From Rubrivivax sp. (GTDB lineage: Bacteria; Pseudomonadota; Gammaproteobacteria; Burkholderiales; Burkholderiaceae_C), in NCBI GenBank assembly GCA_027485165.1, contig JAIXRN010000003.1, positions 62,001-126,000 on the forward strand: a stretch of DNA of 64,000 bases, in the 5' to 3' direction. The position numbers and the translations under genes are program-made. Positions 50,650-64,000 of this stretch are shown one piece after another. The notes beneath the pieces were generated by a model that was given only the letters and a program-made list of their open reading frames with translations, did no database searches and was not told the origin of the DNA. Every line of letters begins with the position of its first letter. Within the stretch, counting starts at the first letter, position 1.

Positions 50650-50651
50650 AG

Positions 50652-51725
50652 ATGCAGGTCAGCGACATCCGCCAACGCTTGCGCGCCCTGGGTGCGCTGC
50701 CGCTGCACGAAGAACGCGTGCTGCGGCGCTGGGCGCTGGCGCAGCCGCAGGAAGGCGGGCGCCAGCGGCTCGACGCCTTCCTGCCCAAGCCCTTGCTGCA
50801 GGCCCTGCCCGGTATCGTGGCCGAACTCGACGGGCTGGCGCGGGTGGCCAGCGCACACCCGGCGGCCGACGGGTCGGCCCGGCTGCTGGTGGCGCTGGCC
50901 GATGGCCAGACCGTGGAAACGGTGCTGCTGCCGCCCGACCGGGCACAGGCGGTGTGCATCAGCAGCCAGGTGGGCTGCGCAGTGGGCTGCGTGTTCTGCA
51001 TGACAGGCCAGGGCGGCCTGCTGCGGCAGATGGGCAGTGCCGAGATCGTGGCCCAGGTGGTGCTGGCGCGGCAGCAGCTGGGCCCGGCGCGCGCGCTGCG
51101 CAAGGTGGTGTTCATGGGCATGGGCGAACCCGCCCACAACCTGGACGCGGTGCTGGAAGCCATCCAGCTGCTGGGCACCGCCGGCGGCATCGCGCACAAG
51201 CAGCTGGTGCTGTCCACGGTCGGCGACCCGCGGGTCTTCGAACGCCTGGCCGCCCTGGGCACGGGCGATGTGAAGCCGGCCCTGGCCCTGTCGCTGCACA
51301 CCAGCAAGGCTGGCCTGCGCGACGAACTGCTGCCGCGTGCGCCGCGTTTTGCGCCGCAGGACCTGGTGGACGCGGGCGAGGTCTATGCCCGCGCCAGCGG
51401 CTACCCCATCCAGTACCAATGGGCCCTGATCGACGGCGTGAACGACGGTGACGACGAGGTCGACGGCATCGCCCGCCTGTTGGCCGGCCGGTATGCGCTG
51501 ATGAACCTCATCCCGTACAACGCCGTCGCCGAGCTGCCCTACCGCCGCCCGGCTGCCGAACGCGCCGCCGAGATGGCGCGCGCGCTGCACCGCCGCGGCG
51601 TGCTGACCAAGCTGCGGCAGTCGGCCGGGCAGGACGTGGAAGCCGGCTGCGGCCAGCTGCGCGCACGCCAGCTGCCGGTGGGCGCAGCCCAGCCGCTGCA
51701 CTGGCGGCCGGTGGCGCCGGGCTGA
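50652..51725 (+). CDS. RlmN/Cfr-like radical SAM RNA methyltransferase
   Basis: Protein of 357 residues. The cluster motif CAVGCVFC (Cys109, 113, 116) lies in VCISSQVGCAVGCVFCMTGQ. FMGMGEPAHNLDAVLEAI and LSTVGD are RlmN-like, as is the C-terminal SAGQDVEAGCGQL, which holds the methyl-carrying Cys near 333. The N-terminal RNA-recognition part is short and unlike standard RlmN, so this may be a paralogue with another RNA target or a minor RlmN. It starts three bases after fghA, though no functional link to formaldehyde is known. Confidence 0.82.
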   Translation: MQVSDIRQRLRALGALPLHEERVLRRWALAQPQEGGRQRLDAFLPKPLLQALPGIVAELDGLARVASAHPAADGSARLLVALADGQTVETVLLPPDRAQAVCISSQVGCAVGCVFCMTGQGGLLRQMGSAEIVAQVVLARQQLGPARALRKVVFMGMGEPAHNLDAVLEAIQLLGTAGGIAHKQLVLSTVGDPRVFERLAALGTGDVKPALALSLHTSKAGLRDELLPRAPRFAPQDLVDAGEVYARASGYPIQYQWALIDGVNDGDDEVDGIARLLAGRYALMNLIPYNAVAELPYRRPAAERAAEMARALHRRGVLTKLRQSAGQDVEAGCGQLRARQLPVGAAQPLHWRPVAPG

Positions 51726-51821: not shown

Positions 51822-51837
51822 TGGCACGCCACGTGCT
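51822..51837 (+). promoter_or_regulatory. sigma-54-type -24/-12 promoter before atzF
   Basis: TGGCACG-CCAC-GTGCT matches the consensus TGGCACG-N4-TTGCW except one T to G, with the invariant GG and GC ten bases apart. Transcription would begin near 51848. Sigma-54 dependence would fit nitrogen-limited expression of the downstream genes. Found by eye, not tested. Confidence 0.45.
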
Positions 51838-51871: not shown

Positions 51872-53647
51872 GTGAACCCCAGCCCCCTGCGCAGCATTGC
51901 CGACTGGCGTGGCCTCAGCCCCGAAGGGCTGGGCGCTGCCGTCGCGCAGGCCCTGCACGCCCGGCGCGAACAGCTGGCGGCCGTGGGCCGGCCGGTTTAC
52001 CTGCACGTCGCCACGCCCGATGAACTGCAGGCCCAGATCGACGCGCTGACGGCGCGCGCCCAGGCCGGCGCTGGCCTGCCGCTGCTGGGCGTGCCCTTCG
52101 TCGTGAAGGACAACATCGACATCGCCGGCGTACCCACCACGGCCGCCTGCCCGGCCTTCGCACGGGTCGCCCCGGCGCACGCCCACGCGGTACAGCGCCT
52201 GGTCGACGCCGGTGCCGTCTGGCTGGGCAAGGCCAACCTGGACCAGTTCGCCACCGGCCTGGTGGGCACGCGTTCGCCTTATGGCGCCCCGGCCAGCGTG
52301 CTGGCGCCGGGCTTCATCAGCGGCGGCAGCAGCTCGGGCTCGGCCGTGGCCGTGGCACGCGGCGACGTGCCTTTCTCGTTGGGCACCGACACGGCCGGCT
52401 CCGGCCGCGTGCCTGCGGCCTTCAATGGCCTGGTGGGCCTGAAGCCCACGCCCGGCCGCGTGGGTACGCAGGGTGTGCTGCCAGCCTGCCGCACGCTGGA
52501 CTGCGTGTCGGTTTTTGCGCACCGCGCCGACGAAGCCGCCGCGGTACTGGCCGCCATCGAAGGCCACGACCGCACCGACCCCTTCAGCTGCTTTGCGCCG
52601 GGCCCGGCGCAGCTGCCCGCCCGGCTGCGCCTGGGCGTGCCCGCCACGCTGCCGCAGCTGGACGCCGCCAGCGCCCTGGCTTTCGACACCGCCTGCAGCG
52701 AAGCCCTGGCCGCCGGCCACACGCTGGTGCCACTGGACTTCGAACCCCTGTTCGCCGTGGCCCGGCTGCTGTACGACGGGCCCTGGGTGGCCGAACGCCA
52801 CAGCGTGGTGCGCACCCTGCTGGCGCAACAGCCCGACAGCCTGGACCCGGTGGTGCGCCACGTCATCGACCAGGCCCTGGCCTACAGCGCCACCGACGCC
52901 TTCGAAGCCCAGTACGCGCTGCGGGCAGCCGCACTGCAACTGCAGGCGCTGTGGCAGGGCGTGGACCTGCTGCTGGTGCCGACGGCGCCCAACCACCCGC
53001 GTTTTGACGACGTGGCGGCCGACCCCGTGGGCGTGAACGCGCGCCTGGGCACCTTCACCAACTTCGTCAACCTGCTGGGCTGGTGCGCCATCGCCGTGCC
53101 GGTGCCCGCCAGTGCGGCGCGTGCACCGACGGCGGGCGTCACCTTCATCGGCCCGGGCGGGCTGGACGCTGCGCTGGCGGCCTTCGCCAGCCGCTGGCTG
53201 GGCGAAGGCGCAACGCCTGGCCTGGCGCAGCCTGCCAGCCAGGCCACGCTGCCGCTGGCCGTGGTCGGCGCGCACCTCTCAGGCCTGCCGCTGAACGGGC
53301 AGCTGACCGAACGTGGTGCACGCCTGCGTGTCGCCACGACCACCGCGCCGCAATACCGCCTGTTTGCGCTGCCTGGCACCACCCCACCCAAGCCTGGCTT
53401 GCTGCGCGTGGACAGCGGCGGCAGCGCGGTGGCCGTGGAAGTGTGGGACATGCCGCTGGCCGCCGTGGGCTCGTTTCTTGCGCTGGTGCCACCACCGCTG
53501 TGCCTGGGGTCGGTGGTGCTGGCCAGTGGGGCCGTGGTGCACGGCTTCCTGTGCGAACCCGCTGCCCTGGCCGGCGCCCGCGACATCACGGCCAGCGGTG
53601 GCTGGCGCGCCTATCTGCAAAGCCTTTCCTTCCCGACCGGAGCTTGA
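51872..53647 (+). CDS. atzF: allophanate hydrolase
   Basis: Amidase-signature enzyme of 591 residues converting allophanate to ammonia and carbon dioxide. The catalytic triad is Lys79 (PFVVKDNIDIAG), Ser153 in GGSSSGS, and Ser177 in GTDTAGSGR, spaced 74 and 24 as in known AtzF. The separate C-terminal domain (about 440-591) ends with GHFL-like WRAYLQSL. The start is GTG 51872; no good ribosome site is seen, and earlier in-frame codons lie in or before the promoter. It opens the nitrogen island, followed four bases later by a binding-protein gene. Confidence 0.92.
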   Translation: MNPSPLRSIADWRGLSPEGLGAAVAQALHARREQLAAVGRPVYLHVATPDELQAQIDALTARAQAGAGLPLLGVPFVVKDNIDIAGVPTTAACPAFARVAPAHAHAVQRLVDAGAVWLGKANLDQFATGLVGTRSPYGAPASVLAPGFISGGSSSGSAVAVARGDVPFSLGTDTAGSGRVPAAFNGLVGLKPTPGRVGTQGVLPACRTLDCVSVFAHRADEAAAVLAAIEGHDRTDPFSCFAPGPAQLPARLRLGVPATLPQLDAASALAFDTACSEALAAGHTLVPLDFEPLFAVARLLYDGPWVAERHSVVRTLLAQQPDSLDPVVRHVIDQALAYSATDAFEAQYALRAAALQLQALWQGVDLLLVPTAPNHPRFDDVAADPVGVNARLGTFTNFVNLLGWCAIAVPVPASAARAPTAGVTFIGPGGLDAALAAFASRWLGEGATPGLAQPASQATLPLAVVGAHLSGLPLNGQLTERGARLRVATTTAPQYRLFALPGTTPPKPGLLRVDSGGSAVAVEVWDMPLAAVGSFLALVPPPLCLGSVVLASGAVVHGFLCEPAALAGARDITASGGWRAYLQSLSFPTGA

Positions 53648-53651
53648 GTCC

Positions 53652-55250
53652 ATGGATCGTCGCGACTTTCTCGTCACCAGCAGCGCTACCGTGGCCGCGC
53701 TGCCGCTGCCCGCCGCCGCACAGGCGCGCCCGCAGGACGTGCTGGTAGTGGCCAACGAATTCGGCCCCAATTCGCTGGACATCCACACTGTCGGCGCCAA
53801 TCGCCCGGCCTATGGCGTGAGCTGGCTGGTCTACGACCGGCTGATGACCTATGGCAAGAAGACCCTGCCCGATGGTCGCGTCATCTACGACCGCAACAAG
53901 CTGGAACCCGAGCTGGCCGAAAGCTGGCAGATCGCGCCCGACGGCAACAGCGTCACCTTCAAGCTGCGCAAGAACGCGAAGTTCCACGACGGCACGCCGG
54001 TGACGGCGAAGGACGTGAAGTGGAGCTTCGACCGCGCCGTCAGCGTGGGCGGCTTCCCCACCTTCCAGATGGCCGCTGGCAGCCTGGAAAAGCCCGATCA
54101 GTTCGAGGTCGTGGACGAGCACACCTTCCGCGTCAAGTTCATCCGCCGCGACAAGCTGACGATGAACGACCTGGCCGTGCCCGTGCCCTGCATTTTCAAC
54201 AGCGAACTGGTGAAGAAGAACGCCACCGCCGCCGACCCCTGGGGCCTGACCTGGACGCGCAACAACACGGCTGGCGGCGGCGCCTACAAGGTGGAAGCCT
54301 TTCGCCCGGGCCAGGAAATCATCTACGTGCGCTATGACGACTGGAAAAGTGGCCCGCTCCCCAAGTTGCGCCGCGTGATCCAGCGTGACGTGCCCAACGC
54401 TGGCAACCGCCGCAGCCTGCTGCTGAAGGGCGACATCGATATCACCTTCGACCTGCCGCCCAAGGACTTCAGCGAACTCAGCCGCGAAGGTGCGGCCGTG
54501 CGGGTGACGTCTACGCCCATCGAGAACGCCATCGTCTACCTGGGCATGAACACCACCAAGCCGCCCTTCGACAACCCGAAGGTGCGGCAGGCCGTGGCCT
54601 GGGCGCTGCCCTACGACAAGATGCACGACAACGCGCTGTACGGGCGCGCCGCGAAGATGTATGGCGCCACCGGTCCTGTGAAAGCCCCCGTGTGGCCGCA
54701 GCCATCGCCTTACCGCACCGACGTGGCCAAGGCCAAGGCCCTGCTGGCCGAAGCCGGGCTTGCCGGCGGCATCGAGACCACGCTCAGCTTCGACCTGGGT
54801 GGCGCCACCATCAACGAACCCATGGCCGTGCTCATCCAGGAAGCCCTGGGCGCGATCGGCATCAAGACCCAGATCAACAAGATCCCCGGCGCCACCTGGC
54901 GCGCGGCCTTGCTGAAGAAGGACATGCCGATGATCGTCAACCGCTTCGGCGGCTGGCTCGATTTCCCCGAGTACTTCTTCTTCTGGTGCTACCACGGCCA
55001 GAACGCGGTGTTCAACACCATGAGCTACCAGAACCCGAAGCTGGACAAGATCATCCAGAACGCCCGCTTCGCCGAGAGCAAGCCGCTGTACGACAGCGCC
55101 GTGCGCGAGATGGTGCAGATCGCCTTCGACGAAGTGCCGCGCGTGCCGCTGTTCCAGCCCACCATGGACGTGGCGATGCAGAAGAACGTGCAGGGCTACC
55201 AGTACTGGTTCCACCTGCAGCCGGACTACCGGCAGCTGTTCAAGGCCTGA
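53652..55250 (+). CDS. ABC transporter substrate-binding protein (peptide/nickel, SBP_bac_5 family)
   Basis: Periplasmic protein of 532 residues with a signal MDRRDFLVTSSATVAALPLPAAA in pieces (Tat-like RRDF), then LEPELAESWQIAPDGNSVTFKLRKNAKFHDGTPVTAKDVKWSFDRAV segments typical of DppA/OppA-type receptors, RQAVAWALPYDKM, and RVPLFQPTMDVAM. It sits between allophanate hydrolase and AtzG genes, but no Opp/Dpp permease or ATPase genes are next to it. It may bind a ureide or short amide and deliver it to a transporter elsewhere, or have been co-opted. Confidence 0.9.
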   Translation: MDRRDFLVTSSATVAALPLPAAAQARPQDVLVVANEFGPNSLDIHTVGANRPAYGVSWLVYDRLMTYGKKTLPDGRVIYDRNKLEPELAESWQIAPDGNSVTFKLRKNAKFHDGTPVTAKDVKWSFDRAVSVGGFPTFQMAAGSLEKPDQFEVVDEHTFRVKFIRRDKLTMNDLAVPVPCIFNSELVKKNATAADPWGLTWTRNNTAGGGAYKVEAFRPGQEIIYVRYDDWKSGPLPKLRRVIQRDVPNAGNRRSLLLKGDIDITFDLPPKDFSELSREGAAVRVTSTPIENAIVYLGMNTTKPPFDNPKVRQAVAWALPYDKMHDNALYGRAAKMYGATGPVKAPVWPQPSPYRTDVAKAKALLAEAGLAGGIETTLSFDLGGATINEPMAVLIQEALGAIGIKTQINKIPGATWRAALLKKDMPMIVNRFGGWLDFPEYFFFWCYHGQNAVFNTMSYQNPKLDKIIQNARFAESKPLYDSAVREMVQIAFDEVPRVPLFQPTMDVAMQKNVQGYQYWFHLQPDYRQLFKA

Positions 55251-55278
55251 ACCTCGCTGGCGCACAGGACACCCCGCC

Positions 55279-55473
55279 ATGGACCACCGCGCCTATGTCG
55301 ACGCCGCCGCCGCCGTGCTGGGCCTGCACATTGCCGCCGAATACCGCGAAGGCGTGCAGCTGTACTTCGACCTAGCGGCGCGCATGGCCGCACTCACCGA
55401 AGGCCTGCCGCTGACGGCGGCCGACGAAAGCGGCAACGTCTTCGCCCCGGTGGCGCCCGAGGCTGGCGAATGA
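55279..55473 (+). CDS. atzG: AtzG-like protein (DUF4089), small partner of AtzE
   Basis: Protein of 64 residues: MDHRAYVDAAAAVLGLHIAA then helices with GVQLYFDLAARMAALTEGLPL and a short acidic tail. It matches DUF4089, which includes AtzG, the small subunit that stabilises AtzE much as GatC does GatA. Its stop overlaps the AtzE start by four bases, supporting stoichiometric translation. Easily overlooked because of its size. Confidence 0.88.
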   Translation: MDHRAYVDAAAAVLGLHIAAEYREGVQLYFDLAARMAALTEGLPLTAADESGNVFAPVAPEAGE

Positions 55474-56861
55474 TCGCCAGCGCCACCGACACCGCGCAAG
55501 CCGTGCGCAGCGGCAGCACCAGCGCGCGCGCAGCGGTGCAGGCCTGCCTGGACCGTATCGCCGCCACCGACGGTCGCGTCAACGCCTTCACCAGCGTGCT
55601 GGCCGAACGTGCGCTGAAGCGCGCCGACGCGGTCGACGCCAGCCCGCGCCGCGCGCGCATGAAGCTGGCCGGCGTGCCCTTCGCGGTGAAGAACCTGTTC
55701 GACGTCGCCGGCCTGCCCACGCTGGCCGGCAGCCAGATCGAACGCCACAGCCCGCTGGCCCGGCGTGACGCTGTGCTGGTGCGCCGGCTGGAAGCCGAAG
55801 GCGCGGTGCTGGTGGGCGCGCTGAACATGGACGAATACGCCTACGGGTTCACAACCGAGAACACGCACTACGGCCCCACGCGCAACCCGCACGACCTGCA
55901 GCGCATCAGCGGCGGTTCTTCAGGCGGGTCGGCCGCCGCGGTGGCAGCTGGCCAGGTACCGATCACACTGGGGTCGGACACCAACGGCAGCATCCGCGTG
56001 CCGTCTTCGCTGTGCGGCACCTACGGCCTGAAGCCCACCTTCGGCCGCCTGCCACGCACCGGCAGCTACCCTTTCGTGGCCAGCCTGGACCACCTGGGCC
56101 CGTTTGCACGCAGCGTGGCCGACCTGGCGGCCAGCTACGACGCCATGCAGGGCTCTGACGTGGCCGACCCATCGTGCGCGCAGCGCGGCATCGAAGCCAC
56201 CCTGGCCGGGCTGGGGCAGGGTGTGGGCGGCATCCGCATCGGTGTGCTGGGCGGCTGGTTCCGCAGCCAGGCCCTGCCTGAAGCCACCGCAGCGGTGGAC
56301 GCCGTGGCCCAGGCGCTGGGCACCACGCGGCTGATCGAATGGCCCGAGGTCGAACGCGCCCGCGCTGCGGCCTTTCTCATCACCTGCGGCGAAGGCGGTG
56401 CCCTGCACCTGGACGACCTGAAGAAGCGCCCGCAGGACTTCGACCCGATGACGCGCGAGCGCTTCATCGCCAATGCTCTGGTACCCGCGGCCTGGGTGAT
56501 GCGCGCCCAGCGCGTGCGCCACTGGTTCGCCCGCCGCGTGGCGCGCAGCTTCGAGACCGTGGACGTCGTCATCGCCCCGGCCACGCCCTGTGTGGCGCCG
56601 CCTATCGGCACGGCCTGGCTGGAACTGGGTGGCCAGCGCCTGCCCGCCCGCGCCAGCATGGGCCTGCTGACCCAGCCCATCAGCGCCATCGGCCTGCCGG
56701 TGGTGACGGTACCGCTGTGGGGGCTGTCGGCCGGCGCGCCACACATGCCCATCGGCGTGCAGCTGGTGGCCGCGCCCTGGCGCGAAGACCTGGCCCTGCG
56801 TGTGGCGGCCGAACTGGAACGCCAGGGCCTGTGCAGCGCGCCGGTGGCGCGCGGGCTGTGA
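55470..56861 (+). CDS. atzE: AtzE family amidohydrolase (1-carboxybiuret hydrolase type)
   Basis: Amidase-signature protein of 463 residues. The triad is Lys74 (PFAVKNLFDVAG), Ser150 in ISGGSSGGSAAA, and Ser174 in GSDTNGSIRVP. The DEYAYGFTTENTHYGPTRNP region after residue 120 and GLPVVTVPLWG near the end fit AtzE. AtzE with AtzG deaminates 1-carboxybiuret to 1,3-dicarboxyurea in cyanuric acid breakdown. Related enzymes may serve other ureides. Overlapping starts link it to AtzG upstream and AtzH downstream. Confidence 0.9.
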   Translation: MIASATDTAQAVRSGSTSARAAVQACLDRIAATDGRVNAFTSVLAERALKRADAVDASPRRARMKLAGVPFAVKNLFDVAGLPTLAGSQIERHSPLARRDAVLVRRLEAEGAVLVGALNMDEYAYGFTTENTHYGPTRNPHDLQRISGGSSGGSAAAVAAGQVPITLGSDTNGSIRVPSSLCGTYGLKPTFGRLPRTGSYPFVASLDHLGPFARSVADLAASYDAMQGSDVADPSCAQRGIEATLAGLGQGVGGIRIGVLGGWFRSQALPEATAAVDAVAQALGTTRLIEWPEVERARAAAFLITCGEGGALHLDDLKKRPQDFDPMTRERFIANALVPAAWVMRAQRVRHWFARRVARSFETVDVVIAPATPCVAPPIGTAWLELGGQRLPARASMGLLTQPISAIGLPVVTVPLWGLSAGAPHMPIGVQLVAAPWREDLALRVAAELERQGLCSAPVARGL

Positions 56862-56875
56862 ACAAGACTGTGGCC

Positions 56876-57253
56876 ATGGACATCAACCTGCCCGACGTGC
56901 ACGCCGAACTCAGCGCCGTGTTCGCGCAGTACGAAGACGCGCTGGTGCACAACCGCATCGACGTGCTGGACGCCCTGTTCTGGGCCAGCCCGCACACCGT
57001 GCGCTACGGCGTGGGCGAAAACCTGCACGGCATCGACGCCATCCGCGCCTTTCGCGCTGCACGCCCGGCGCAGGGCCTGCATCGCCGGCTGTTCAACACC
57101 GTCATCACCACCTACGGCCGCGACCACGGCACCGCCATGACCGAATTCCAGCGCGAAGGCAGCAGCAAGACTGGCCGCCAAAGCCAGACCTGGTGCCGCA
57201 TCGACGGGCGCTGGGTGGTGGTGGCCGCGCACGTCAGTTTGCTGATGACATGA
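56876..57253 (+). CDS. AtzH/HpxZ-like protein (DUF3225)
   Basis: NTF2-fold protein of 125 residues: MDINLPDVHAELSAVFAQYE then LFWASPHTVRYGVGENLHGIDAIRAFRAARPAQGL and a GRQSQTWCRIDGRWVVVAAHVS sheet. The family includes HpxZ of oxalurate catabolism and AtzH, a 1,3-dicarboxyurea decarboxylase that makes allophanate for AtzF. ATG 56876 fits the family N-terminus; GTG 56858 would overlap the AtzE stop. With AtzG/AtzE and AtzF it completes the carboxybiuret-to-ammonia steps. Confidence 0.88.
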   Translation: MDINLPDVHAELSAVFAQYEDALVHNRIDVLDALFWASPHTVRYGVGENLHGIDAIRAFRAARPAQGLHRRLFNTVITTYGRDHGTAMTEFQREGSSKTGRQSQTWCRIDGRWVVVAAHVSLLMT

Positions 57254-57282
57254 CCCCCCGAAACACCAGGAGCGAGAGCACC

Positions 57283-58398
57283 ATGAACGACAAGACCCTG
57301 AACACCGACCGCCGCCGTCTGCTGGCCGCCAGCGCACTGGCAGCCGCCGGCACAACGATGGCTGGTCGCGCCTTCGCGCAAGCGCCCATCACCATCGGCG
57401 TGATCTACGTCGGCCCGCGCGACGACTACGGCTACAACCAGGCGCAGGCCGAAGCCGCGGCGGCGCTGAAGAAGCTGCCCGGCATCAAGGTCGTCGAAGA
57501 AGAGAACGTGCCCGAGACGCAAGCCGTGCAGAAGACCATGCAGGGCATGATCAGCCAAGACGGCGCGGCCCTGCTCTTCCCCACCAGCTTCGGCTACTTC
57601 GACCCGCACATGCTGGCCATTGCAGCGAAGAACCCGAAGGTGCGCTTCGCCCATTGCGGCGGCCTGTGGACCAAGGGCAAGCACCCCGACAACACCGGCA
57701 GCTTCTTCGGCTACATCGACGAAGCGCAATACCTGAACGGCGTGATCGCTGGCCACGCCAGCAAGAGCAAGAAGCTGGGCTTCATCGCCGCCAAGCCCAT
57801 CCCGCAGGTGCTGCGCAACATCAACGCCTTCACGCTGGGCGCACGCTCGGTCGACCCGAAGATCACCACCACCGCCATCTTCACTGGCGACTGGAGCATG
57901 CCGGTGAAGGAAGCCGAGGCCACCAACAGCCTGGCCGACCAGGGCGTTGACGTGTTCACGATGCACGTGGACGGGCCGAAGGTCATCGTCGAGACCGCGG
58001 CCAAGCGCGGCAAGATGGTCTGCGGCTACCACGCCAGCCAGGCCAAGCTGGCCCCGCAGGCCTACCTGACGGGCGCGGAATGGAACTGGATCTCGGCCTA
58101 CAACCAGATCATCGACGCCGCGCGCACTGGCAAACCGCACCCCAACTTCGTGCGCGGCGGCCTGAAGGAAGGCTTCGTCAAGAGCAGCGCCTACGGCCCC
58201 GGCGCCAGCGAAGGCGCGCGCAAGGCCGCCGACGCCGTGCGCGCCAAGATGCTGGCCGGCACATTCGACATCTTCAGCGGCGAACTGAAGGACAACACCG
58301 GCAAGGTCGTCATCCCTAAGGGCACTGCGCTGAGGCAGACCGACGTGAGCCTGGAAGGCATGAACTACCTGGTCGAAGGCGTGATCGGCAAGGCCTGA
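57283..58398 (+). CDS. BMP family ABC transporter substrate-binding protein
   Basis: Periplasmic receptor of 371 residues with a Tat-like signal (RRRLLAASALAAAG, ending FAQA) and the basic-membrane-protein fold: ITIGVIYVGPRDDYGYNQAQA, FGYFDPHMLAIAAKNPKVRFAHCGG, SFFGYIDEAQYLNGVIAGHAS and the VFTMHVDGPKVIVETA segment. BMP receptors usually bind nucleosides; in this context the ligand may be a ureide, amide or purine breakdown product. AGGAG lies about eight bases before ATG 57283. It is followed by two permease genes. Confidence 0.93.
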   Translation: MNDKTLNTDRRRLLAASALAAAGTTMAGRAFAQAPITIGVIYVGPRDDYGYNQAQAEAAAALKKLPGIKVVEEENVPETQAVQKTMQGMISQDGAALLFPTSFGYFDPHMLAIAAKNPKVRFAHCGGLWTKGKHPDNTGSFFGYIDEAQYLNGVIAGHASKSKKLGFIAAKPIPQVLRNINAFTLGARSVDPKITTTAIFTGDWSMPVKEAEATNSLADQGVDVFTMHVDGPKVIVETAAKRGKMVCGYHASQAKLAPQAYLTGAEWNWISAYNQIIDAARTGKPHPNFVRGGLKEGFVKSSAYGPGASEGARKAADAVRAKMLAGTFDIFSGELKDNTGKVVIPKGTALRQTDVSLEGMNYLVEGVIGKA

Positions 58399-58411
58399 AC
58401 GGGCCAGCACG

Positions 58412-59485
58412 ATGAACCCCTGGCGCGACAGCATCGAATCGGTCGGTCTGCCGGTGCTGGCCCTGCTGGGCGGCCTGGCCTTGTTCGGCATGTTCGTGTG
58501 GTTCGGCGGGCACGACCCGCTGCAGGCCTGGTCGCTGCTGTTTGTGGGTGCCTTTGGCGACGCCTTCAGCTTCCAGAACACCCTGCAGCGCGCCGCGCCG
58601 CTGATGCTGACGGCGCTGTGCGTGGCCCTGCCGCAGCGTGCCGGCCTGACCATCATCGGCGGCGAAGGCGCCCTGGTGCTGGGCGGCCTGGCCTGCGCTG
58701 CGCTGCCCACGCTGTGGGCGCCGCCCGCCAATGCCTGGGGCACGGCCGTGCTGCTGGCCGCCGCTGCCGCCGCGGGCGCCGCATGGGTGGCGCTGGCTGG
58801 TGTGCTGCGGCAGTGGCGCGGCGTGAACGAAACCATTTCCAGCCTGCTGCTGGCCTACATCGCCATCGCCCTGTTCAAGCACCTGGTGGAAGGCCCGCTG
58901 CGCGACCCGGCGAGCCTGAACAAGCCTTCCACCGTGCCGCTGGAAGAAGGCTTGCGCATCGGCACCATCGCCGGCTACGACGTGCACTGGGGCCTGATCT
59001 TCGGCATCCTGGCCTGCGTGCTGGCCGCCCTGTGGCTGGGCGCCACCACGCACGGCTTTGCCACCCGCGTGGTGGGTGGCAACCTGCGCGCGGCGCAGAT
59101 CGTGGGCCTGCCGGCGGTGCGCCTGGTCATCACCGCTTGCGCGCTGGGCGGCGCGGCAGCCGGGCTGGCTGGTGGCATCGAGGTCGCGGCGGTACACACC
59201 GCGGCCAACGCGTCGATCATCGCCGGGCTGGGCTACACCGGCATCCTGGTTAGCTTCGTGGCGCGCCACAACCCGCTGGCCATCATCCCGGTGGCCATTC
59301 TCTTCGGTGGCTTCCTGGCCGCCGGCAGCCTGCTGCAGCGGCGCATGGGTCTGCCCGACGCGTCGGTGCAGGTGCTGATGGGTTTCTGCTTCGTGCTGAT
59401 CCTGGCCAGCGAAGCCCTTCGCGGGCGCCTGAGCTGGCAACTGCTGAAGCCACGCGTGCCGGCGGCAGGGGTGGCGGCGGCATGA
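58412..59485 (+). CDS. ABC transporter permease (BMP/nucleoside type), first subunit
   Basis: Inner-membrane protein of 357 residues with about eight to ten hydrophobic helices. Family segments are LFVGAFGDAFSFQNTLQRAAPLMLTAL, AGLTIIGGEGALVLGG, GVNETISSLLLAYIAIALFKHLVEGPLRDP, THGFATRVVGGNLRAAQIVGL (coupling loop) and GLGYTGILVSFVARHNPLAIIPVAILFGGFLAAGS. It belongs to the branched-chain/simple sugar permease group and pairs with the second permease gene 633 bases later. It starts 13 bases after the binding-protein gene. Confidence 0.92.
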   Translation: MNPWRDSIESVGLPVLALLGGLALFGMFVWFGGHDPLQAWSLLFVGAFGDAFSFQNTLQRAAPLMLTALCVALPQRAGLTIIGGEGALVLGGLACAALPTLWAPPANAWGTAVLLAAAAAAGAAWVALAGVLRQWRGVNETISSLLLAYIAIALFKHLVEGPLRDPASLNKPSTVPLEEGLRIGTIAGYDVHWGLIFGILACVLAALWLGATTHGFATRVVGGNLRAAQIVGLPAVRLVITACALGGAAAGLAGGIEVAAVHTAANASIIAGLGYTGILVSFVARHNPLAIIPVAILFGGFLAAGSLLQRRMGLPDASVQVLMGFCFVLILASEALRGRLSWQLLKPRVPAAGVAAA

Positions 59486-59543
59486 GGTGCTTCGAGTGTT
59501 CGGCTGTTGGCCCCTTGCCGACGTTGCGCGGATGTGTGTCCCG

Positions 59544-59782
59544 GCAAAGGCGTGCTGGGGCTGGCTGTGGCGCTTATCCTCGGCGGCCTGCGCTGCGCTC
59601 CGGCTCCCCTGCGGTGCTCGGTCCCGCGGCCCCATCGCGGAACTCGCTACGTTCGCTGCGCTCACTGCGCTCAGACACCCGCGATGAGTCAGTTCACGAG
59701 TCGCGCTGCGCGCGAGGGCCGCGGGCCCTGCGCTCCTCGGCGCCTCCCATGCGCGCCACAGCCAGCCCCAGCCCGCCTTTGC
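59544..59782. repeat. element 1: 30-bp inverted repeats (29 of 30 matching) around 179 bp
   Basis: The arm 59544-59573 (core GCTGGGGCTGGCTGTGGCGC) is repeated inverted at 59753-59782 with one mismatch. The interior contains further partly complementary pieces (for example CCGCGGCCC near 59624 against GGGCCGCGG near 59717). The layout suggests a palindromic mobile or structured intergenic element. There is no coding capacity for a transposase. Confidence 0.75.
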
Positions 59783-59792
59783 AAACCATCGC

Positions 59793-59863
59793 GGCGCGCA
59801 ACCGGTCGCCAGGCACTGTCCCATCCACCTGCAGGGATGGTCGCCAGCGACCCGTCGCGCGCC
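59793..59863. repeat. hairpin between the two larger elements
   Basis: GGCGCGCAACCGGTCGC (59793-59809) and GCGACCCGTCGCGCGCC (59847-59863) are complementary at 15 of 17 positions. Inside lies a further CCATCC/GGATGG stem (59821-59840). It links element 1 and element 2. Confidence 0.6.
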
Positions 59864-59874
59864 GAAATCTTGCC

Positions 59875-60004
59875 GGGCTGCGGCAGTCGGGTGGCCCCTG
59901 GAGCGAAGTCAAGGAGGAGCCAGCGCAGTGCCTTACTCAGACGTTGGCTTGCAACGCGCTGGCGGGGGACATGAGCGGAAGGGGCCACCCGACTGCCGCA
60001 GCCC
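59875..60004. repeat. element 2: perfect 24-bp inverted repeats around 82 bp
   Basis: GGGCTGCGGCAGTCGGGTGG plus CCCC (59875-59898) recurs exactly inverted at 59981-60004. An internal stem CCAGCGCAGTGC/GCAACGCGCTGG (59920-59931 with 59951-59962, 10 of 12) would extend the fold. A 130-base cruciform or RNA hairpin is possible. Confidence 0.8.
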
Positions 60005-60118
60005 AGGGATCAAGCCAGCACGCCGATGGTCGAATGCAAACGACCGAGAAGGGCCGCAAGCCGCCATCCGCCGCAACGCCTCGTGAAGCAACCAAGCTCG
60101 GTGCTCGGAGGGTTTCGA

Positions 60119-61051
60119 ATGAGTGACAGCGCATTCCTCGACGTCGTCATCGCCGTGCTGGGCGGTGCCATCCGCGTCGGCACGCCCTTCCTGTTCGTCA
60201 GCCTGGGCGAATGCATCACGGAAAAGGCCGGGCGCATCAACCTGGGCCTGGAAGGGGTGTTGGTGTTCTCCGCCATGGCCGGGTTCGGGGTGTCGTATCT
60301 GACGGGGCTGTGGTGGCTGGGCGTGCTGGCGGCGGGCTGCAGCGGGGCCTTGATCGCGCTGCTGCATGGCCTGGTGTGCAGCTTGCCGCGGGTGAACGAC
60401 ATCGCAGCTGGCATTGCCATCATGGGCCTGGGGGCGGGGCTGGCGTTCTATCTGGGCAAGCCCCTGATCCAGCCGCAGGCGCCGCAGATCCCGTCGCTGA
60501 ACCTGGGCGCCTGGCTGGGGCCGGACGCTGCCACAGGCGCCGCCGCCAGCGCGCTGAACATCAACCTGCTGTTCCCGCTGGGCGTGCTGCTGGCCTTCGC
60601 GCTGGCCTGGGGCCTGGCCAACACCGGCTGGGGCCTGAAGGTGCGCATGGTGGGCGACTCGGCCGACGCCGCGCGGGCGCTGGGTACGTCGGTCAACGGC
60701 GTGCGCATCGCGGCCACCACGGCCGGCGGCTTCATCGCCGGGCTGGGCGGGGCTTCGCTGTCGCTGTACTACCCCGGCAGCTGGAACGAAGGCTTGTCCA
60801 GCGGCCAGGGGCTGATTGCCGTGGCGCTGGTGATCTTTGCGCGCTGGCAGCCGCTGCGCTGCCTGTGGGCAGCGTTGCTGTTTGGCGGCGCGGGGGCGCT
60901 GGGGCCGGCGTTGCAGTCGGTGGGCGTGACGGGCGGGTACTACCTGTTCAACGCCGTGCCTTATGTGCTGACGCTGGCCATCCTGGTGTGGACCTGCTCG
61001 CCGCGGCGCAGCCTGGTCGGTGCGCCGCAAGAACTGGGAGTGATGCGATGA
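60119..61051 (+). CDS. ABC transporter permease (BMP/nucleoside type), second subunit
   Basis: Inner-membrane protein of 310 residues with about eight helices. The family is clear from GTPFLFVSLGECITEKAGRINLGLEGVLV, GLVCSLPRVNDIAAGIAIMGLGAGLAFYLGKPLIQPQ, WGLKVRMVGDSADAARALGTSVNGVRIAATTAGGFIAGLGGA and a final TM near TLAILVWTC. It is the partner of the first permease gene despite the 633-base interval. ATG 60119 has GGAGGG about nine bases upstream. Its stop overlaps the formamidase start. Confidence 0.93.
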   Translation: MSDSAFLDVVIAVLGGAIRVGTPFLFVSLGECITEKAGRINLGLEGVLVFSAMAGFGVSYLTGLWWLGVLAAGCSGALIALLHGLVCSLPRVNDIAAGIAIMGLGAGLAFYLGKPLIQPQAPQIPSLNLGAWLGPDAATGAAASALNINLLFPLGVLLAFALAWGLANTGWGLKVRMVGDSADAARALGTSVNGVRIAATTAGGFIAGLGGASLSLYYPGSWNEGLSSGQGLIAVALVIFARWQPLRCLWAALLFGGAGALGPALQSVGVTGGYYLFNAVPYVLTLAILVWTCSPRRSLVGAPQELGVMR

Positions 61052-62070
61052 GTGGCCTGGGTGGTTTGAACAAGTCGCCGAACGGCGTCGTCGTCGGCCT
61101 GGTGCAGCTGCAGCTGCCCGTGGTGGAAACGCCGGCGCAACTGAAAGCGCAGGCCGAACGCATCTGCTGGATGGTGGGCAAGGCACGGCGCAACCTGGGC
61201 ACGATGGACCTGGTGGTGTTTCCGGAATACAGCCTGCACGGCCTGAGCATGAGCACCGCGCCCGAACTGATGGTGCAGCTTGATGGCCCCGAAGTCGCGT
61301 CCTTCAAGGCCGCGTGTGTTGAACACCGGATCTGGGGCTGCTTCTCGATCATGGAGTTCAACCCCCACGGCAACCCCTACAACACTGGCCTCATCATCGA
61401 CGACCAGGGCCAGCTGCGCCTTTACTACCGCAAGCTGCACCCCTGGGTGCCGGTGGAAGCCTGGGAACCCGGCAATATGGGCATCCCGGTGTGCGAAGGG
61501 CCCAACGGCTGCAAGCTGGCGCTGATCATCTGCCACGACGGCATGTTCCCCGAGATGGCGCGCGAGGCTGCGTACAAGGGCGCGGAGATCATCCTGCGCA
61601 CAGCGGGCTACACCGCGCCCATCCGCCACGCCTGGAAGATCACCAACCAGGCGAACGCCTTCCAGAACCTGGCCATCACCGCCAGCGTGTGCCTGTGCGG
61701 CAGCGACGGCAGCTTCGACAGCATGGGCGAAGGCATGTTCTGCCACTTCGACGGCAGCGTCATCGCCGCAGGCGGCGCCCGGCCCGACGAGATCGTCACC
61801 GCCGAACTGCGGCCCGACCTGGTGCGTGAAGCCCGCGCCGGCTGGGGCGTGGAAAACAACCCCTACCAGCTGTGGCACCGCGGCTATGTAGCGGTGAAAG
61901 GCGGGGCGCAGGACTGCCCCTACACCTTCATGCACGACATGGTGGCCGGGCGCTACCAGCTGCCCTGGGACCCCAGCATCCAGGTGCGCGACGGCACGCC
62001 CTGCGGCTTCGCGCCGCCCACGCGGGCCTACCGCGGGCCCGAGCCCAACCCCTTCGAAGCCGAAGGCTAG
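61048..62070 (+). CDS. amiF: formamidase
   Basis: Nitrilase-superfamily enzyme of 340 residues hydrolysing formamide to formate and ammonia. The N-terminus SGLGGLNKSPNGVVVGLVQL and the length fit AmiF closely. The triad is Glu60 (VVFPEYSLHG), Lys129 (YYRKLHPW) and Cys162 (LIICHDGMFPEMAREAAYKG). It overlaps the permease stop (ATGA) and precedes the biuret hydrolase gene, within the transporter operon, so its substrate is likely brought in by that transporter. Formate here could also enter one-carbon oxidation. Confidence 0.94.
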   Translation: MSGLGGLNKSPNGVVVGLVQLQLPVVETPAQLKAQAERICWMVGKARRNLGTMDLVVFPEYSLHGLSMSTAPELMVQLDGPEVASFKAACVEHRIWGCFSIMEFNPHGNPYNTGLIIDDQGQLRLYYRKLHPWVPVEAWEPGNMGIPVCEGPNGCKLALIICHDGMFPEMAREAAYKGAEIILRTAGYTAPIRHAWKITNQANAFQNLAITASVCLCGSDGSFDSMGEGMFCHFDGSVIAAGGARPDEIVTAELRPDLVREARAGWGVENNPYQLWHRGYVAVKGGAQDCPYTFMHDMVAGRYQLPWDPSIQVRDGTPCGFAPPTRAYRGPEPNPFEAEG

Positions 62071-62088
62071 ACGGCCCTGACGTACGCC

Positions 62089-62814
62089 ATGACGCACGCC
62101 ATGAAGCACGCGATGAAGGCCGTCCAGGCCACCCCTTACGCCTGGCCCTTCGACGGCGACCTGCGCCCGGCCAACACGGCCCTGGTCATCATCGACATGC
62201 AGACCGACTTCTGCGGCCCCGGCGGCTATGTCGACAAGATGGGCTACGACATCGGCCTGACGCGCGCACCCATCGGCCCCATTCAGCGCCTGCTGCAGGC
62301 CATGCGCGAACGCAGCTTCCACGTCATCCACACGCGTGAAGGTCACCGGCCCGACCTGTCGGACCTGCCGGCCAACAAGCGCTGGCGTTCGCGCCAGATC
62401 GGTACCCCTGGCGCAGATGGCATCGGCATCGGCATCGGCGACGCCGGCCCCTGCGGCCGCATCCTGGTGCGTGGCGAACCGGGCTGGAACATCATTCCCG
62501 AACTCGCGCCGCTGCCGGGCGAGCCCGTCATCGACAAGCCCGGCAAGGGCAGTTTCTGCGCCACTGATCTTGAATTGCTGCTGTACACGCGCGGCATCCG
62601 CAACCTGGTGCTGACCGGCATCACCACCGACGTGTGCGTGCACACGACGATGCGCGAAGCCAACGACCGCGGCTTCGAATGCCTGCTGGTGGAAGACGGC
62701 ACCGCCGCCACCGACGCGCGCCACCACGCCGCTGCCATCGGCATGGTGCACATGCAGGGCGGGGTGTTCGGCGCCACAGCCACATCGGCTGCCGTGCTGG
62801 AGGCCCTGTCATGA
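62089..62814 (+). CDS. biuH: biuret hydrolase-like cysteine hydrolase (isochorismatase family)
   Basis: Protein of 241 residues. The segments [62 protein letters not shown], the [16 protein letters not shown] stretch and [16 protein letters not shown] are those of BiuH, which splits biuret into allophanate and ammonia. The catalytic Asp36, Lys150 and Cys183 are present. A short [11 protein letters not shown] stretch near 108-118, encoded by three GGCATC repeats, looks like a small insertion compared with what I recall of other BiuH proteins. Its product would feed AtzF. ATG 62089 is used; ATG 62101 and 62113 are also possible. Confidence 0.87.
62419..62436 (+). repeat. (GGCATC)3 hexamer repeat inside biuH
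   Basis: Three perfect copies encode Gly-Ile repeats at the probable insertion in the biuret hydrolase; frame-neutral if copy number changes. Confidence 0.6.
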
Positions 62815-64000
62815 CCGCCCTGGCGCTGGAAACCTACAAGCTGACCAAGCGCTTCGGCAGTTTCACGGCGCTGGACCATGTCAGCCTGACCGTGCGCCCC
62901 GGCACCGTGCACGCGCTGCTGGGCGAGAACGGCGCGGGCAAGAGCACGCTGGTGAAGTGCATCGTCGGCTACTACCGGCCCGAGGAAGGCGCGGTGCTGA
63001 TCGACGGCCGCGAACAGGCCATCAGCAGCCCCACGGTGGCGCGCGCTTTAGGCATCGGCATGGTCTACCAGCACTTCACTGTCGTGCCGGGCATGACGGT
63101 GGCGGAAAACCTGCTGATCGCGCGCGGCGCGCTGCCGGCCGTGATCGACTGGAAGCGCCTGCGTGCCGAGCTGTCGGCCTTCATGGCCGGCGCGCCCTTC
63201 CGTCTGGACCTGGACGCCACGCCGCTGGACCTGTCGGCGGGCGAAAAGCAGAAGCTGGAAATCCTGAAGCAGCTGTACCTGCAGCCGCGCCTGCTGATCC
63301 TGGATGAACCCACCAGCGTGCTGACGCCGCAGGAAGCCGACGAAGTGCTGGGCGCGCTGCGCGAGCGTGCGCATGCCGGGCACTGCAGCGTGGTGATGAT
63401 CACGCACAAGTTCCGCGAAGTGGCGGCCTATGCCGACGACGTGACCGTGCTGCGGCGCGGTGCGCGCGTGGCCAGCCGTGCCGTGGCCGATGCGCCTGCG
63501 GCTGAACTCGCCGCGCTGATGGTTGGGGGCGACAAAGCGCCCGCGGCAACATCCGAAGTGCCTGCTGCAGCGGCCCCCACCCCTGCGCGCAGTGCGGCCG
63601 CCCCCGGCGCCGTCACCCTTCAAGTGCGCGGCCTGGTGGTGATGGGCGACCGCGGCGAAGTCGCCGTCGGCCCCGGAAAAGGGCTGGACCTGGACGTGCG
63701 CGCTGGCGAAATCGTCGGCATTGCCGGCGTCAGCGGCAACGGCCAGCGTGAACTGATGGAAGCCCTGGCCGGCCAGCGCGCGCGCGAGTCCGGCAGCGTG
63801 CAGGTGGCCGGGCAGCCCTATGCCGCCACGCGCCAGCAGAACCGCGCGCTGAAGGTGCGCGGCCTGCCCGAAGAGCCCTTGCGCAACGCCTGCGTGGGTG
63901 CGATGAGCGTGGCCGACAACATCGGCCTGCGTGCCTTTGACGTGCAGCCCTTCTCGCGCGCTGGCTGGCGCATGCCGGGCACGCTGGCGCAGCGCGCGCG
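62811..64000 (+). CDS. ABC transporter ATP-binding protein (BMP/nucleoside type), cut by window end
   Basis: The frame runs from ATG 62811, overlapping the biuH stop (ATGA), to the right edge without a stop; 396 codons are visible. It is a double-ATPase subunit. The first domain has Walker [13 protein letters not shown]-loop YQHFTVV, signature [12 protein letters not shown], Walker [10 protein letters not shown] and an H-loop ITHKF. The second domain begins near residue 265 with [20 protein letters not shown], as in RbsA/YufO proteins. An Ala/Pro-rich linker ([20 protein letters not shown]) separates them. With the BMP receptor and two permeases it completes the importer. Confidence 0.92.

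What the first reader, a model, noticed from the sequence alone, without database searches (positions are those of the whole stretch)
51872..64000. Organic-nitrogen island joining AtzF, AtzG-AtzE-AtzH, formamidase and BiuH with a BMP-type importer
The sequence shows, on one strand with mostly overlapping or closely spaced genes, allophanate hydrolase, the AtzG/AtzE/AtzH trio, formamidase, a BiuH-like enzyme and a complete BMP ABC importer. From known families these produce ammonia from carboxybiuret, biuret, allophanate and formamide. The ring-opening enzyme AtzD (or barbiturase) that would start cyanuric acid or pyrimidine breakdown is not in the window. My inference is that this is a dedicated uptake-and-deamidation system for a natural ureide whose identity is not described, with the BMP transporter importing that ureide and not a nucleoside.
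Basis: partly seen in the sequence, partly recalled or inferred. Interest (0 to 1): 0.8.

Follow-up and report, generated by a model that had tools for sequence, protein, structure and literature searches.

The report
Triuret-scavenging operon with carboxybiuret branch
This gene cluster most likely lets a bacterium import triuret and biuret, small nitrogen-rich breakdown products of uric acid and urea fertilizer, and strip all their nitrogen as ammonia; it uses enzymes so far known mainly from herbicide breakdown, which hints at what those enzymes did in nature.

Summary
The island is real, but the window cuts it. On the same contig it runs from window 51872 to the equivalent of 69003: atzF, SBP_bac_5, atzG-E-H, bmp, two permeases, formamidase, biuH, BMP ATPase, trtA, oppBCDF. 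The "missing" first enzyme is a second isochorismatase right of the window: its best solved match is the triuret hydrolase TrtA (311 bits vs 214 for a biuret hydrolase), and it has all six TrtA-type discriminating residues where the window's BiuH has the six BiuH-type ones. TrtA's published product, carboxybiuret, is AtzGE's substrate. So the ureide is most likely triuret (plus biuret), not an undescribed compound. Most parts are published; new is how they fit. Of 53 TrtA-bearing genomes in a 200-genome family sample, 41 carry AtzE, 11 TrtB, none both. AtzH Arg66 is kept in 63 of 63 AtzE-linked copies and lost in 35 of 36 without AtzE. AtzGEH thus looks like an alternative to TrtB+BiuH. The BMP pocket lacks AtzT's purine-contacting Glu165 in 100 of 100 near relatives, though two remoter trtA-linked ones keep it; the ligand is untested.

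The parts
51822..51837 (+). candidate sigma-54 (-24/-12) promoter, 1 mismatch to the recalled consensus, 34 bp before the atzF start
   Evidence: chance: mean 4.18 such sites per window, so presence alone means little; relatives have it too: 20 of 59 atzF upstream stretches with at most 1 mismatch vs 0.63% of 4000 control stretches
51872..53647 (+). atzF, allophanate hydrolase (amidase plus C-terminal domain)
   Evidence: NF006043 728 bits, TIGR02713 694 bits, PF01425 and PF21986
53652..55250 (+). Opp/Dpp-type solute-binding protein, probable partner of oppBCDF lying right of the window
   Evidence: PF00496 285.6 bits; same arrangement in relatives
55279..55473 (+). atzG, small subunit of 1-carboxybiuret hydrolase
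   Evidence: PF13318 54.9 bits
55470..56861 (+). atzE, 1-carboxybiuret hydrolase catalytic subunit
   Evidence: NF006631 706 bits; PDB 6c62 566 bits; 60% identical to AtzE of strain ADP
56876..57253 (+). atzH (DUF3225, HpxZ), 1,3-dicarboxyurea decarboxylase type with Arg66
   Evidence: NF033625 190.7 bits; pocket YRRRRFRQQ identical to ADP AtzH
57283..58398 (+). BMP-family binding protein with altered nucleobase pocket (Glu165 to Gln)
58412..59485 (+). BMP transporter permease B
   Evidence: PF02653
59486..60118 (.). 633-bp gap made of a dispersed genomic repeat, not part of the conserved operon
   Evidence: 63 match rows in the genome, itself and short self-matches included; gap 637 bp between aligned ends vs median 57 in 81 loci
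60119..61051 (+). BMP transporter permease A
   Evidence: PF02653
61048..62070 (+). formamidase
   Evidence: NF009803 550 bits, cut-off 406; PDB 5g3o 360 bits
62089..62814 (+). biuH, biuret hydrolase
   Evidence: NF050097 403 bits, cut-off 370; six of six BiuH-type residues
62811..64000 (+). BMP transporter ATPase (cut by the window; ends at the equivalent of 64397). Then, outside the window: trtA 64394-65092, oppB 65096-66115, oppC 66126-66971, oppD 66971-68002, oppF 68011-69003
   Evidence: window equivalent = L009 position + 63499

Best explanation
It is a nitrogen-scavenging operon for triuret and biuret. The BMP transporter (and perhaps the Opp transporter) imports the ureide. TrtA removes one terminal amide of triuret, giving NH3 and carboxybiuret. 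AtzGE removes the next, giving NH3 and 1,3-dicarboxyurea; AtzH decarboxylates this to allophanate; AtzF releases the last two NH3. All four nitrogens are thus freed without passing through biuret or urea. BiuH takes imported biuret and the biuret formed when carboxybiuret decarboxylates by itself, and delivers allophanate to AtzF. Formamidase is an optional part with its own fixed slot; I infer that it clears formamide left by formylated ureides. Shown here: gene identity by sequence, order, residue signatures, co-occurrence and mutual exclusion. Taken from papers: the reactions of TrtA, AtzGE, AtzH and BiuH of other strains. Inferred: that these proteins do the same here, what the transporters carry, and nitrogen (sigma-54) control.
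For: TrtA identity. AtzE, AtzH, AtzF, BiuH, formamidase. TrtA makes carboxybiuret (PMC7948467). Family sample of 200 genomes: TrtA in 53, AtzE in 52, both in 41 (Fisher 8e-22; by genus 35 shared of 45 and 46 among 141, 9e-15); in 35 of the 41 they lie within 10 kb. Branch choice: of 96 non-redundant loci with enough flank, AtzE only 55, TrtB only 25, both 0, neither 16 (Fisher 1.4e-12); in the family sample 41, 11, 0 and 1 (TrtB counted from 133 bits up, the next score being 117 for an AtzE-adjacent copy). The choice switches repeatedly on the TrtA tree (GEH 14 label changes, at least 8 forced by starred branches). Bypass of BiuH: 7 of 9 BiuH-less loci carry AtzE, and in 5 of 5 such genomes checked the best non-TrtA relative of BiuH is at most 40% identical. 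Sigma-54.
Against: No growth, binding or enzyme data for this organism. AtzE also occurs without TrtA in 11 of 52 AtzE genomes of the family sample and in Opp-AtzE-AtzH clusters of another family with no TrtA within about 8 kb, so AtzGE must have another supplier there. 16 of 96 loci have neither AtzE nor a TrtB label; L027, L035, L066 and L157 of these hold a DUF3225 protein without Arg66, leaving 12, of which L176 and L187 have AtzE elsewhere in the genome. Three of the five BiuH-less genomes (G034, G183, G078) have a divergent TrtA on a long branch, so their TrtA could differ in substrate. In L049 and L050 trtA sits beside an AtzT-type BMP gene with Glu165. The own sigma-54 site has a mismatch in the -12 element.
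Confidence: 0.83

Rival explanations
1. Cyanuric acid or s-triazine operon of the Pseudomonas ADP kind: cyanuric acid is opened to carboxybiuret and AtzGEH-AtzF finish it.
For: AtzGEH-AtzF is the ADP module. AtzD homologues sit in 6 of 131 non-redundant trtA loci (L019, L021, L054, L078, L157, L173).
Against: No AtzD among the 16 genes of the cluster; a PF09663 search of the own genome (93.4% complete) found none, although no control genome rang either, so absence is not proved. TrtA supplies the same intermediate.
Confidence: 0.06
2. Oxalurate or allantoin (purine) catabolism of the Hpx kind: AtzG-E-H here are HpxX-Y-Z and act on oxalurate.
For: NCBIfam names the DUF3225 gene HpxZ; Klebsiella hpxXYZ is the same gene order; HpxZ keeps Arg66.
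Against: AtzE is 60.0% identical to ADP AtzE but 54.7% to HpxY. On the AtzE tree ADP AtzE falls inside a mostly trtA-linked set; HpxY is a long branch with weak support. None of the 16 genes was named as another allantoin or purine gene.
Confidence: 0.05
3. The BMP transporter is an ordinary purine or nucleoside importer that happens to be nearby (PMC12625717 labels it bmpA-nupABC, ABC-type nucleoside transporter).
For: Best solved relatives bind guanine (AtzT, PMC6834077) or were modelled with adenine (3S99); the aromatic clamp, Ser97 and Phe98 are kept.
Against: Glu165, which contacts guanine, is replaced in 100 of 100 non-redundant trtA-locus BMP proteins at least 50% identical to this one (95 Q, 4 S, 1 T). 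The His/Asp pair at 218/220 is not decisive: 3S99 has it too (alignment). 87 of 96 loci keep this BMP gene with trtA.
Confidence: 0.2
4. A dedicated importer and pathway for a still unknown natural ureide, with TrtA and BiuH acting on it.
For: Formamidase is unexplained by triuret alone, yet sits between permease A and biuH in 37 of the 39 loci (of 96) that have it. Opp-AtzE-AtzH clusters exist without TrtA in view.
Against: TrtA's published specificity for triuret is very high: no other tested substrate above 0.5% (PMC7948467), and the signature residues are intact.
Confidence: 0.12

Closest known systems
Triuret pathway of Herbaspirillum sp. BH-1 and Rhizobium (TrtA, BiuH, AtzF, with TrtB in some genomes; PMC7948467)
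   Same: TrtA, BiuH and AtzF in one operon; residue signatures match
   Different: AtzGEH instead of TrtB; formamidase and two ABC transporters in the same run
atzDGEHF / atzRSTUVW operons of Pseudomonas sp. ADP pADP-1 (PMC6219798, PMC6834077)
   Same: AtzGEH-AtzF module, BMP-family transporter nearby, sigma-54 control reported for ADP
   Different: first enzyme TrtA instead of AtzD; BiuH present; BMP pocket Gln instead of Glu at 165
atzF-ABC-atzG-atzE-atzH-ABC-amidase clusters of Rhodoferax, Variovorax, Rhizobacter, Leptothrix, Methylibium (PMC6219798, section read)
   Same: the same architecture; this island is of that kind
   Different: there the function was left open; here, and in Variovorax loci, the downstream hydrolases are identified as (formamidase) BiuH and TrtA
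trtA-biuH-trtB-atzF-bmpA-nupABC of nitrifiers (PMC12625717, passages read)
   Same: BMP transporter with trtA, biuH and atzF
   Different: TrtB or no such gene instead of AtzGEH
hpxXYZ of Klebsiella
   Same: same three-gene order and families
   Different: no TrtA, BiuH or AtzF named in the 19-kb stretch; sits with hpxU and an amino-acid ABC transporter

Membership tests
TrtA (triuret hydrolase) | closest solved relative is TrtA, not BiuH | tested here: met
   6xix 311 bits and 6xj4 307 bits vs 6xjm (biuret hydrolase) 214 bits; PMC7948467 names 6XJ4 and 6XJE as TrtA
TrtA (triuret hydrolase) | catalytic Asp24, Lys129, Cys162 and Gln202 | tested here: met
   D33, K138, C171, Q211; 131 of 131 TrtA rows
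TrtA (triuret hydrolase) | Phe35, Asn41, Ala134, Glu160, Tyr187, Ile205 instead of BiuH consensus | tested here: met
   six of six
TrtA (triuret hydrolase) | activity on triuret, about none on biuret | not testable with these tools
   needs purified protein
BiuH (biuret hydrolase) | NF050097 equivalog cut-off and BiuH-type residues | tested here: met
   403.1 vs 370 bits; YYSDTV. The trtA product fails this cut-off, 257 bits
AtzGE (1-carboxybiuret hydrolase) | AtzE family plus AtzG-like small subunit beside it | tested here: met
   4-bp overlap
AtzGE (1-carboxybiuret hydrolase) | hydrolysis of carboxybiuret | not testable with these tools
   inferred from 60% identity to ADP AtzE
AtzH (DUF3225 dicarboxyurea decarboxylase) | arginine-rich pocket Tyr22, Arg46, 63, 66, 73, Phe94, Arg96, Gln106, Gln108 | tested here: met
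   identical at 9 of 9
TrtB (carboxybiuret decarboxylase) | DUF3225 protein of the trtA-linked, AtzE-free clades (my working definition; the TrtB paper was not read) | tested here: not met
   the window protein groups with AtzE-linked AtzH and keeps Arg66
ADP-type cyanuric acid operon | cyanuric acid hydrolase AtzD in the operon | tested here: not met
   none among the 16 genes; genome-wide inconclusive
BMP / PnrA-type binding protein | PF02608 and fold | tested here: met
AtzT-type purine-binding BMP protein | Glu165 contacting the purine | tested here: not met
   Gln175 at that place; Q, S or T in 100 of 100 near relatives in trtA loci
Formamidase | NF009803 equivalog cut-off | tested here: met
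   550 vs 406 bits

The most novel reading that the evidence does not exclude
AtzGEH, known as the carboxybiuret module of atrazine breakdown, is by origin the carboxybiuret branch of triuret catabolism, and the ADP operon borrowed it. Cells choose between AtzGEH and TrtB+BiuH, and one pocket position of the DUF3225 protein (Arg66) gates which branch it serves: Arg66 keeps AtzH off carboxybiuret, and its loss turns the protein into a carboxybiuret decarboxylase. Formamidase in the operon extends the diet to formylureas: deamidation of formylurea by TrtA or BiuH would leave formamide.
Probability: 0.4. Interest if true: 0.65.

Novelty: new variant of a known kind. Interest (0 to 1): 0.5.

Why it matters
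Esquirol et al. 2018 (PMC6219798) found atzG-atzE-atzH clusters far more widespread than cyanuric acid catabolism and could not say what they do; their Variovorax/Rhodoferax-type cluster has the architecture of this island. Identifying TrtA in it supplies the missing source of carboxybiuret without any herbicide, and the strict choice between AtzGEH and TrtB gives a natural experiment. It makes three things directly testable: growth on triuret through AtzGEH, Arg66 as a specificity gate between two decarboxylations, and the ligand of a BMP transporter labelled a nucleoside importer in the nitrifier study. Triuret is applied to fields with urea fertilizer and forms from uric acid (PMC7948467).

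Tried and rejected
Considered and rejected: cyanuric acid operon (no AtzD in the cluster); Hpx oxalurate operon (AtzE nearer to ADP AtzE than to HpxY); a role for the left neighbours frmA, fghA and the rlmN-like gene (tblastn at E 1e-20 in the 142 loci of the database found FghA and RlmN only in the own locus and FrmA once, in L020, at 60%; 51 of the 61 loci with a near-full AtzF hold at least 1 kb beyond its start, but few would hold all three genes). The His/Asp pair of the BMP pocket was first taken as specific and then dropped, because adenine-modelled 3S99 has it too (alignment); only Glu165 to Gln stands. The idea that Arg66 is needed for AtzH catalysis was dropped: PMC6219798 (section read) lists Tyr22, Arg46 and Arg63Lys variants as impaired, not Arg66Ala or Arg66Lys; only a gating role remains. 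The idea of many independent Arg66 losses was dropped: the AtzH tree needs only 2 changes. Genome-wide BiuH absence could not be read (threshold too close to BiuH scores), so one search was run.

Results against the rules I state: L053 keeps Arg66 with no AtzE in view (contig end; its genome's best AtzE match is 39% identical). Outside trtA loci, 7 DUF3225 proteins with no true AtzE beside them keep Arg66 (L209, L210, L212, L221, L228, L230, L236; beside some lies only a weak or partial AtzE/HpxY-like hit of 33-43%), so the rule holds only inside trtA clusters. L235 has TrtB, BiuH and formamidase but no TrtA. L180 (G058) looks like a biuH-trtA hybrid gene with TrtB and no BiuH. L052 has neither branch nor BiuH. 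Whether AtzE rows are trtA-linked is not clustered on the AtzE tree (10 changes vs 10.5 shuffled). The trtA-locus BMP genes remoter than 50%: L159 and L175 have Gln, L049 and L050 Glu, and L034, L089, L148, L161 Ser at position 165.

Rows dropped: 3 duplicate loci and 35 loci with too little flank before the 96-locus count; 2 of 55 matched genomes (G041, G068; 236 and 223 bits, BiuH level) before the count of 53 TrtA genomes; the first BMP count (101 rows) held one duplicate, so 100 is used. Of the 63 AtzE-linked DUF3225 copies 57 lie in TrtA loci and 6 do not; linked means within 2.5 kb. L027 was relabelled TrtB by hand in the tree but not in the table. TrtB reference sequences were chosen from AtzE-free loci. 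For the model the window's BMP protein and 29 of the 57 listed were aligned. L035, L066 and G020 were checked genome-wide: no AtzE match above 43% identity.
Full report
What is there. The window is bases 62001-126000 of contig C58 of its assembly, so the sequence to the right could be read. The cluster is one co-directional run of 16 genes from window 51872 to the equivalent of 69003: atzF, an Opp-type binding protein, atzG, atzE, atzH, bmp, permease B, permease A, formamidase, biuH, BMP ATPase, trtA, oppB, oppC, oppD, oppF. Intergenic distances are -4 to 29 bp except 633 bp between the permeases; that gap is a repeat found at many other places of the genome. The next genes to the right (a metalloprotease on the other strand, then unrelated proteins) do not belong to the cluster.

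The missing first enzyme. The gene overlapping the end of the BMP ATPase, just outside the window, encodes a second isochorismatase-fold hydrolase. It fails the BiuH cut-off (257 vs 370 bits). Its best solved relatives are 6xix (311 bits) and 6xj4 (307), against 214 for a biuret hydrolase; PMC7948467 names 6XJ4 and 6XJE, one sequence here, as TrtA, and in the printed alignments 6xix differs from it only at the catalytic cysteine. At the six positions which that paper uses to tell TrtA from BiuH, the new protein is TrtA-like six times and the window's BiuH is BiuH-like six times. Over 131 non-redundant loci F35, N41, E160 and Y187 are kept in 130 TrtA rows, and the full BiuH signature in 105 of 107 BiuH rows.

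Why this names the ureide. TrtA hydrolyses triuret to carboxybiuret with no other tested substrate above 0.5% of its rate; carboxybiuret loses CO2 by itself with a half-life near 20 minutes (PMC7948467, section read). Carboxybiuret is the substrate of AtzGE, whose product 1,3-dicarboxyurea AtzH converts to allophanate for AtzF (PMC6219798, abstract and sections 13-15 read). The operon therefore encodes a complete route from triuret to four NH3, plus BiuH for biuret. The reactions are from the papers; that these proteins perform them is inference from sequence.

Conservation. From 80 trtA loci of named genomes (the best 80 of 585, so biased to near relatives) and 52 from other genomes of the same family, plus the own locus and a plasmid, 134 loci hold TrtA, 131 of them non-redundant and 96 with at least 8.9 kb upstream and 3.6 kb downstream. 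Of the 96, 87 have this BMP gene, 85 have BMP and biuH, and in 85 trtA directly follows the BMP ATPase gene. Formamidase is in 39, and in 37 of these lies between permease A and biuH. Opp genes of this clade occur in 13 of the 131 loci.

A choice at carboxybiuret. Of the 96 loci, 55 have AtzE, 25 have a lone DUF3225 gene of the TrtB clades, none has both, 16 have neither. Across whole genomes of a 200-genome family sample, TrtA is in 53, AtzE in 52, both in 41 (35 within 10 kb, 1 at 18 kb, 5 on separate contigs); TrtB is in 11, all with TrtA, none with AtzE; one genome (G020) has TrtA with neither. The TrtB cut (133 bits and up) is mine; the next score, 117, belongs to a copy next to AtzE. On the TrtA tree the AtzGEH label changes 14 times, at least 8 of them forced by supported branches, so this is not one inherited event. 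Seven of nine BiuH-less loci carry AtzE, and in five such genomes no BiuH orthologue was found at E 1e-20, the best other relative being at most 40% identical; in three of the five TrtA itself is divergent. That is what one expects if AtzGEH can replace TrtB plus BiuH. Neither same-genus genome in the sample (2 of 2) has TrtA or AtzE at the thresholds used, so the island is patchy.

A residue that follows the choice. Of the nine AtzH pocket residues named in PMC6219798, Arg66 is kept in 63 of 63 DUF3225 proteins linked to AtzE and replaced by V, T, C, S, L, A or F in 35 of 36 without AtzE in the locus. In a second sample (phylum-wide, 40 stretches) it is kept in 28 of 28 next to AtzE/HpxY, and all 3 TrtB-type proteins lack it, but 9 of 12 not adjacent to AtzE keep it, two of them (L223, L234) with AtzE elsewhere in a TrtA-bearing stretch and 7 outside TrtA loci. 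Two Variovorax loci and G020 kept an AtzH of the AtzE-linked clade, have no AtzE (checked genome-wide) and have Leu66. The tree needs only two changes at this position, so the support is strong in numbers but small in independent events. The published Arg66 variants were not listed as impaired, so I read Arg66 as a filter, not a catalyst.

The transporters. The BMP protein belongs with AtzT and 3S99, which hold free nucleobases, not with the nucleoside binders. AtzT binds guanine at 110 nM through Ser97, Phe98, Glu165, Asn218, Asn220 between Tyr45 and Trp194 (PMC6834077, parts 1-3 of 5 read). Here the clamp, Ser and Phe are kept and Glu165 is Gln; in 100 non-redundant trtA-locus BMP proteins at least 50% identical to it, position 165 is Q in 95, S in 4, T in 1 and never E. 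Two further BMP proteins only 40% identical but next to biuH-trtA also have Gln (L159, L175), while two trtA-linked ones of AtzT type keep Glu (L049, L050). A flat, ring-sized ureide would suit such a pocket; this is inference. The Opp transporter's cargo is unknown; a plasmid stretch of Terrarubrum has Opp, TrtA, AtzF and AtzGEH without BMP or BiuH in its 19 kb, so Opp may suffice for triuret.

Regulation. A sigma-54-like site lies 34 bp before atzF (consensus recalled). In relatives 20 of 59 atzF upstream stretches and 36 of 96 bmp upstream stretches have such a site with at most one mismatch, against 0.63% of 4000 control stretches. Relatedness of the loci was not corrected for. Sigma-54 and nitrogen control are reported for the ADP operons (PMC6834077).

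Evolution. ADP AtzE falls inside a supported clade of 27 AtzE proteins, 19 of them trtA-linked, and ADP AtzH inside the mostly AtzE-linked AtzH set. This fits borrowing of the module from triuret clusters, but the sample was seeded with TrtA, so the direction is not proved.

What is known and what is new. Known: TrtA-BiuH-AtzF operons (2020), the cluster type without a function (2018), and bmpA-nupABC beside trtA in nitrifiers, with TrtB in some (PMC12625717, passages read). PMC7948467 already remarks that AtzEG of strain ADP hydrolyses carboxybiuret, the TrtA product. Six library searches (listings) brought up no paper that, in what I read, joins AtzGEH to trtA in one cluster or describes the exclusion or the Arg66 pattern; the library lacks most subscription papers, and the paper that described TrtB (reference 16 of PMC7948467) was not read. 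Verdict: a new variant of a known kind, with a testable answer to what AtzGEH is for.

Noticed in passing
window 59486-60118: A dispersed, partly palindromic repeat interrupts the operon between the two BMP permeases; 63 match rows genome-wide including itself and short self-matches. L010 and L168 also have a gap over 500 bp there.
   Followed up: partly
L180 (G058), about 12.6 kb in the oriented locus: Apparent biuH-trtA hybrid gene: BiuH-type residues at 35 and 41, TrtA-type at the other four; no separate biuH or BMP ATPase gene was found in the stretch.
   Followed up: partly
What feeds AtzGE there is unknown.
   Followed up: partly
L019, L021, L054, L078, L157, L173, L214: Cyanuric acid hydrolase (AtzD) homologues inside trtA clusters, giving two sources of carboxybiuret.
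   Followed up: no
L235 (G442): BMP, BiuH, formamidase and TrtB cluster without a TrtA hit.
   Followed up: no
L034, L089, L148, L161: A second BMP-type transporter and a 37-40% BiuH-like hydrolase beside AtzE-AtzH-TrtA; substrate unknown.
   Followed up: no
window 48671-51725: Formaldehyde-detoxification genes (glutathione-dependent dehydrogenase and S-formylglutathione hydrolase, names recalled) and an rlmN-like gene (name recalled) directly left of the island; no sign that they are conserved beside it.
   Followed up: partly
G000:C82:22333-22707: The own genome also has urease alpha, so urea could be used independently of this island.
   Followed up: no
G000:C58:35215-35793: DNA 67% identical to the BMP ATPase gene, left of the window on the same contig: probably a second transporter ATPase gene.
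   Followed up: no
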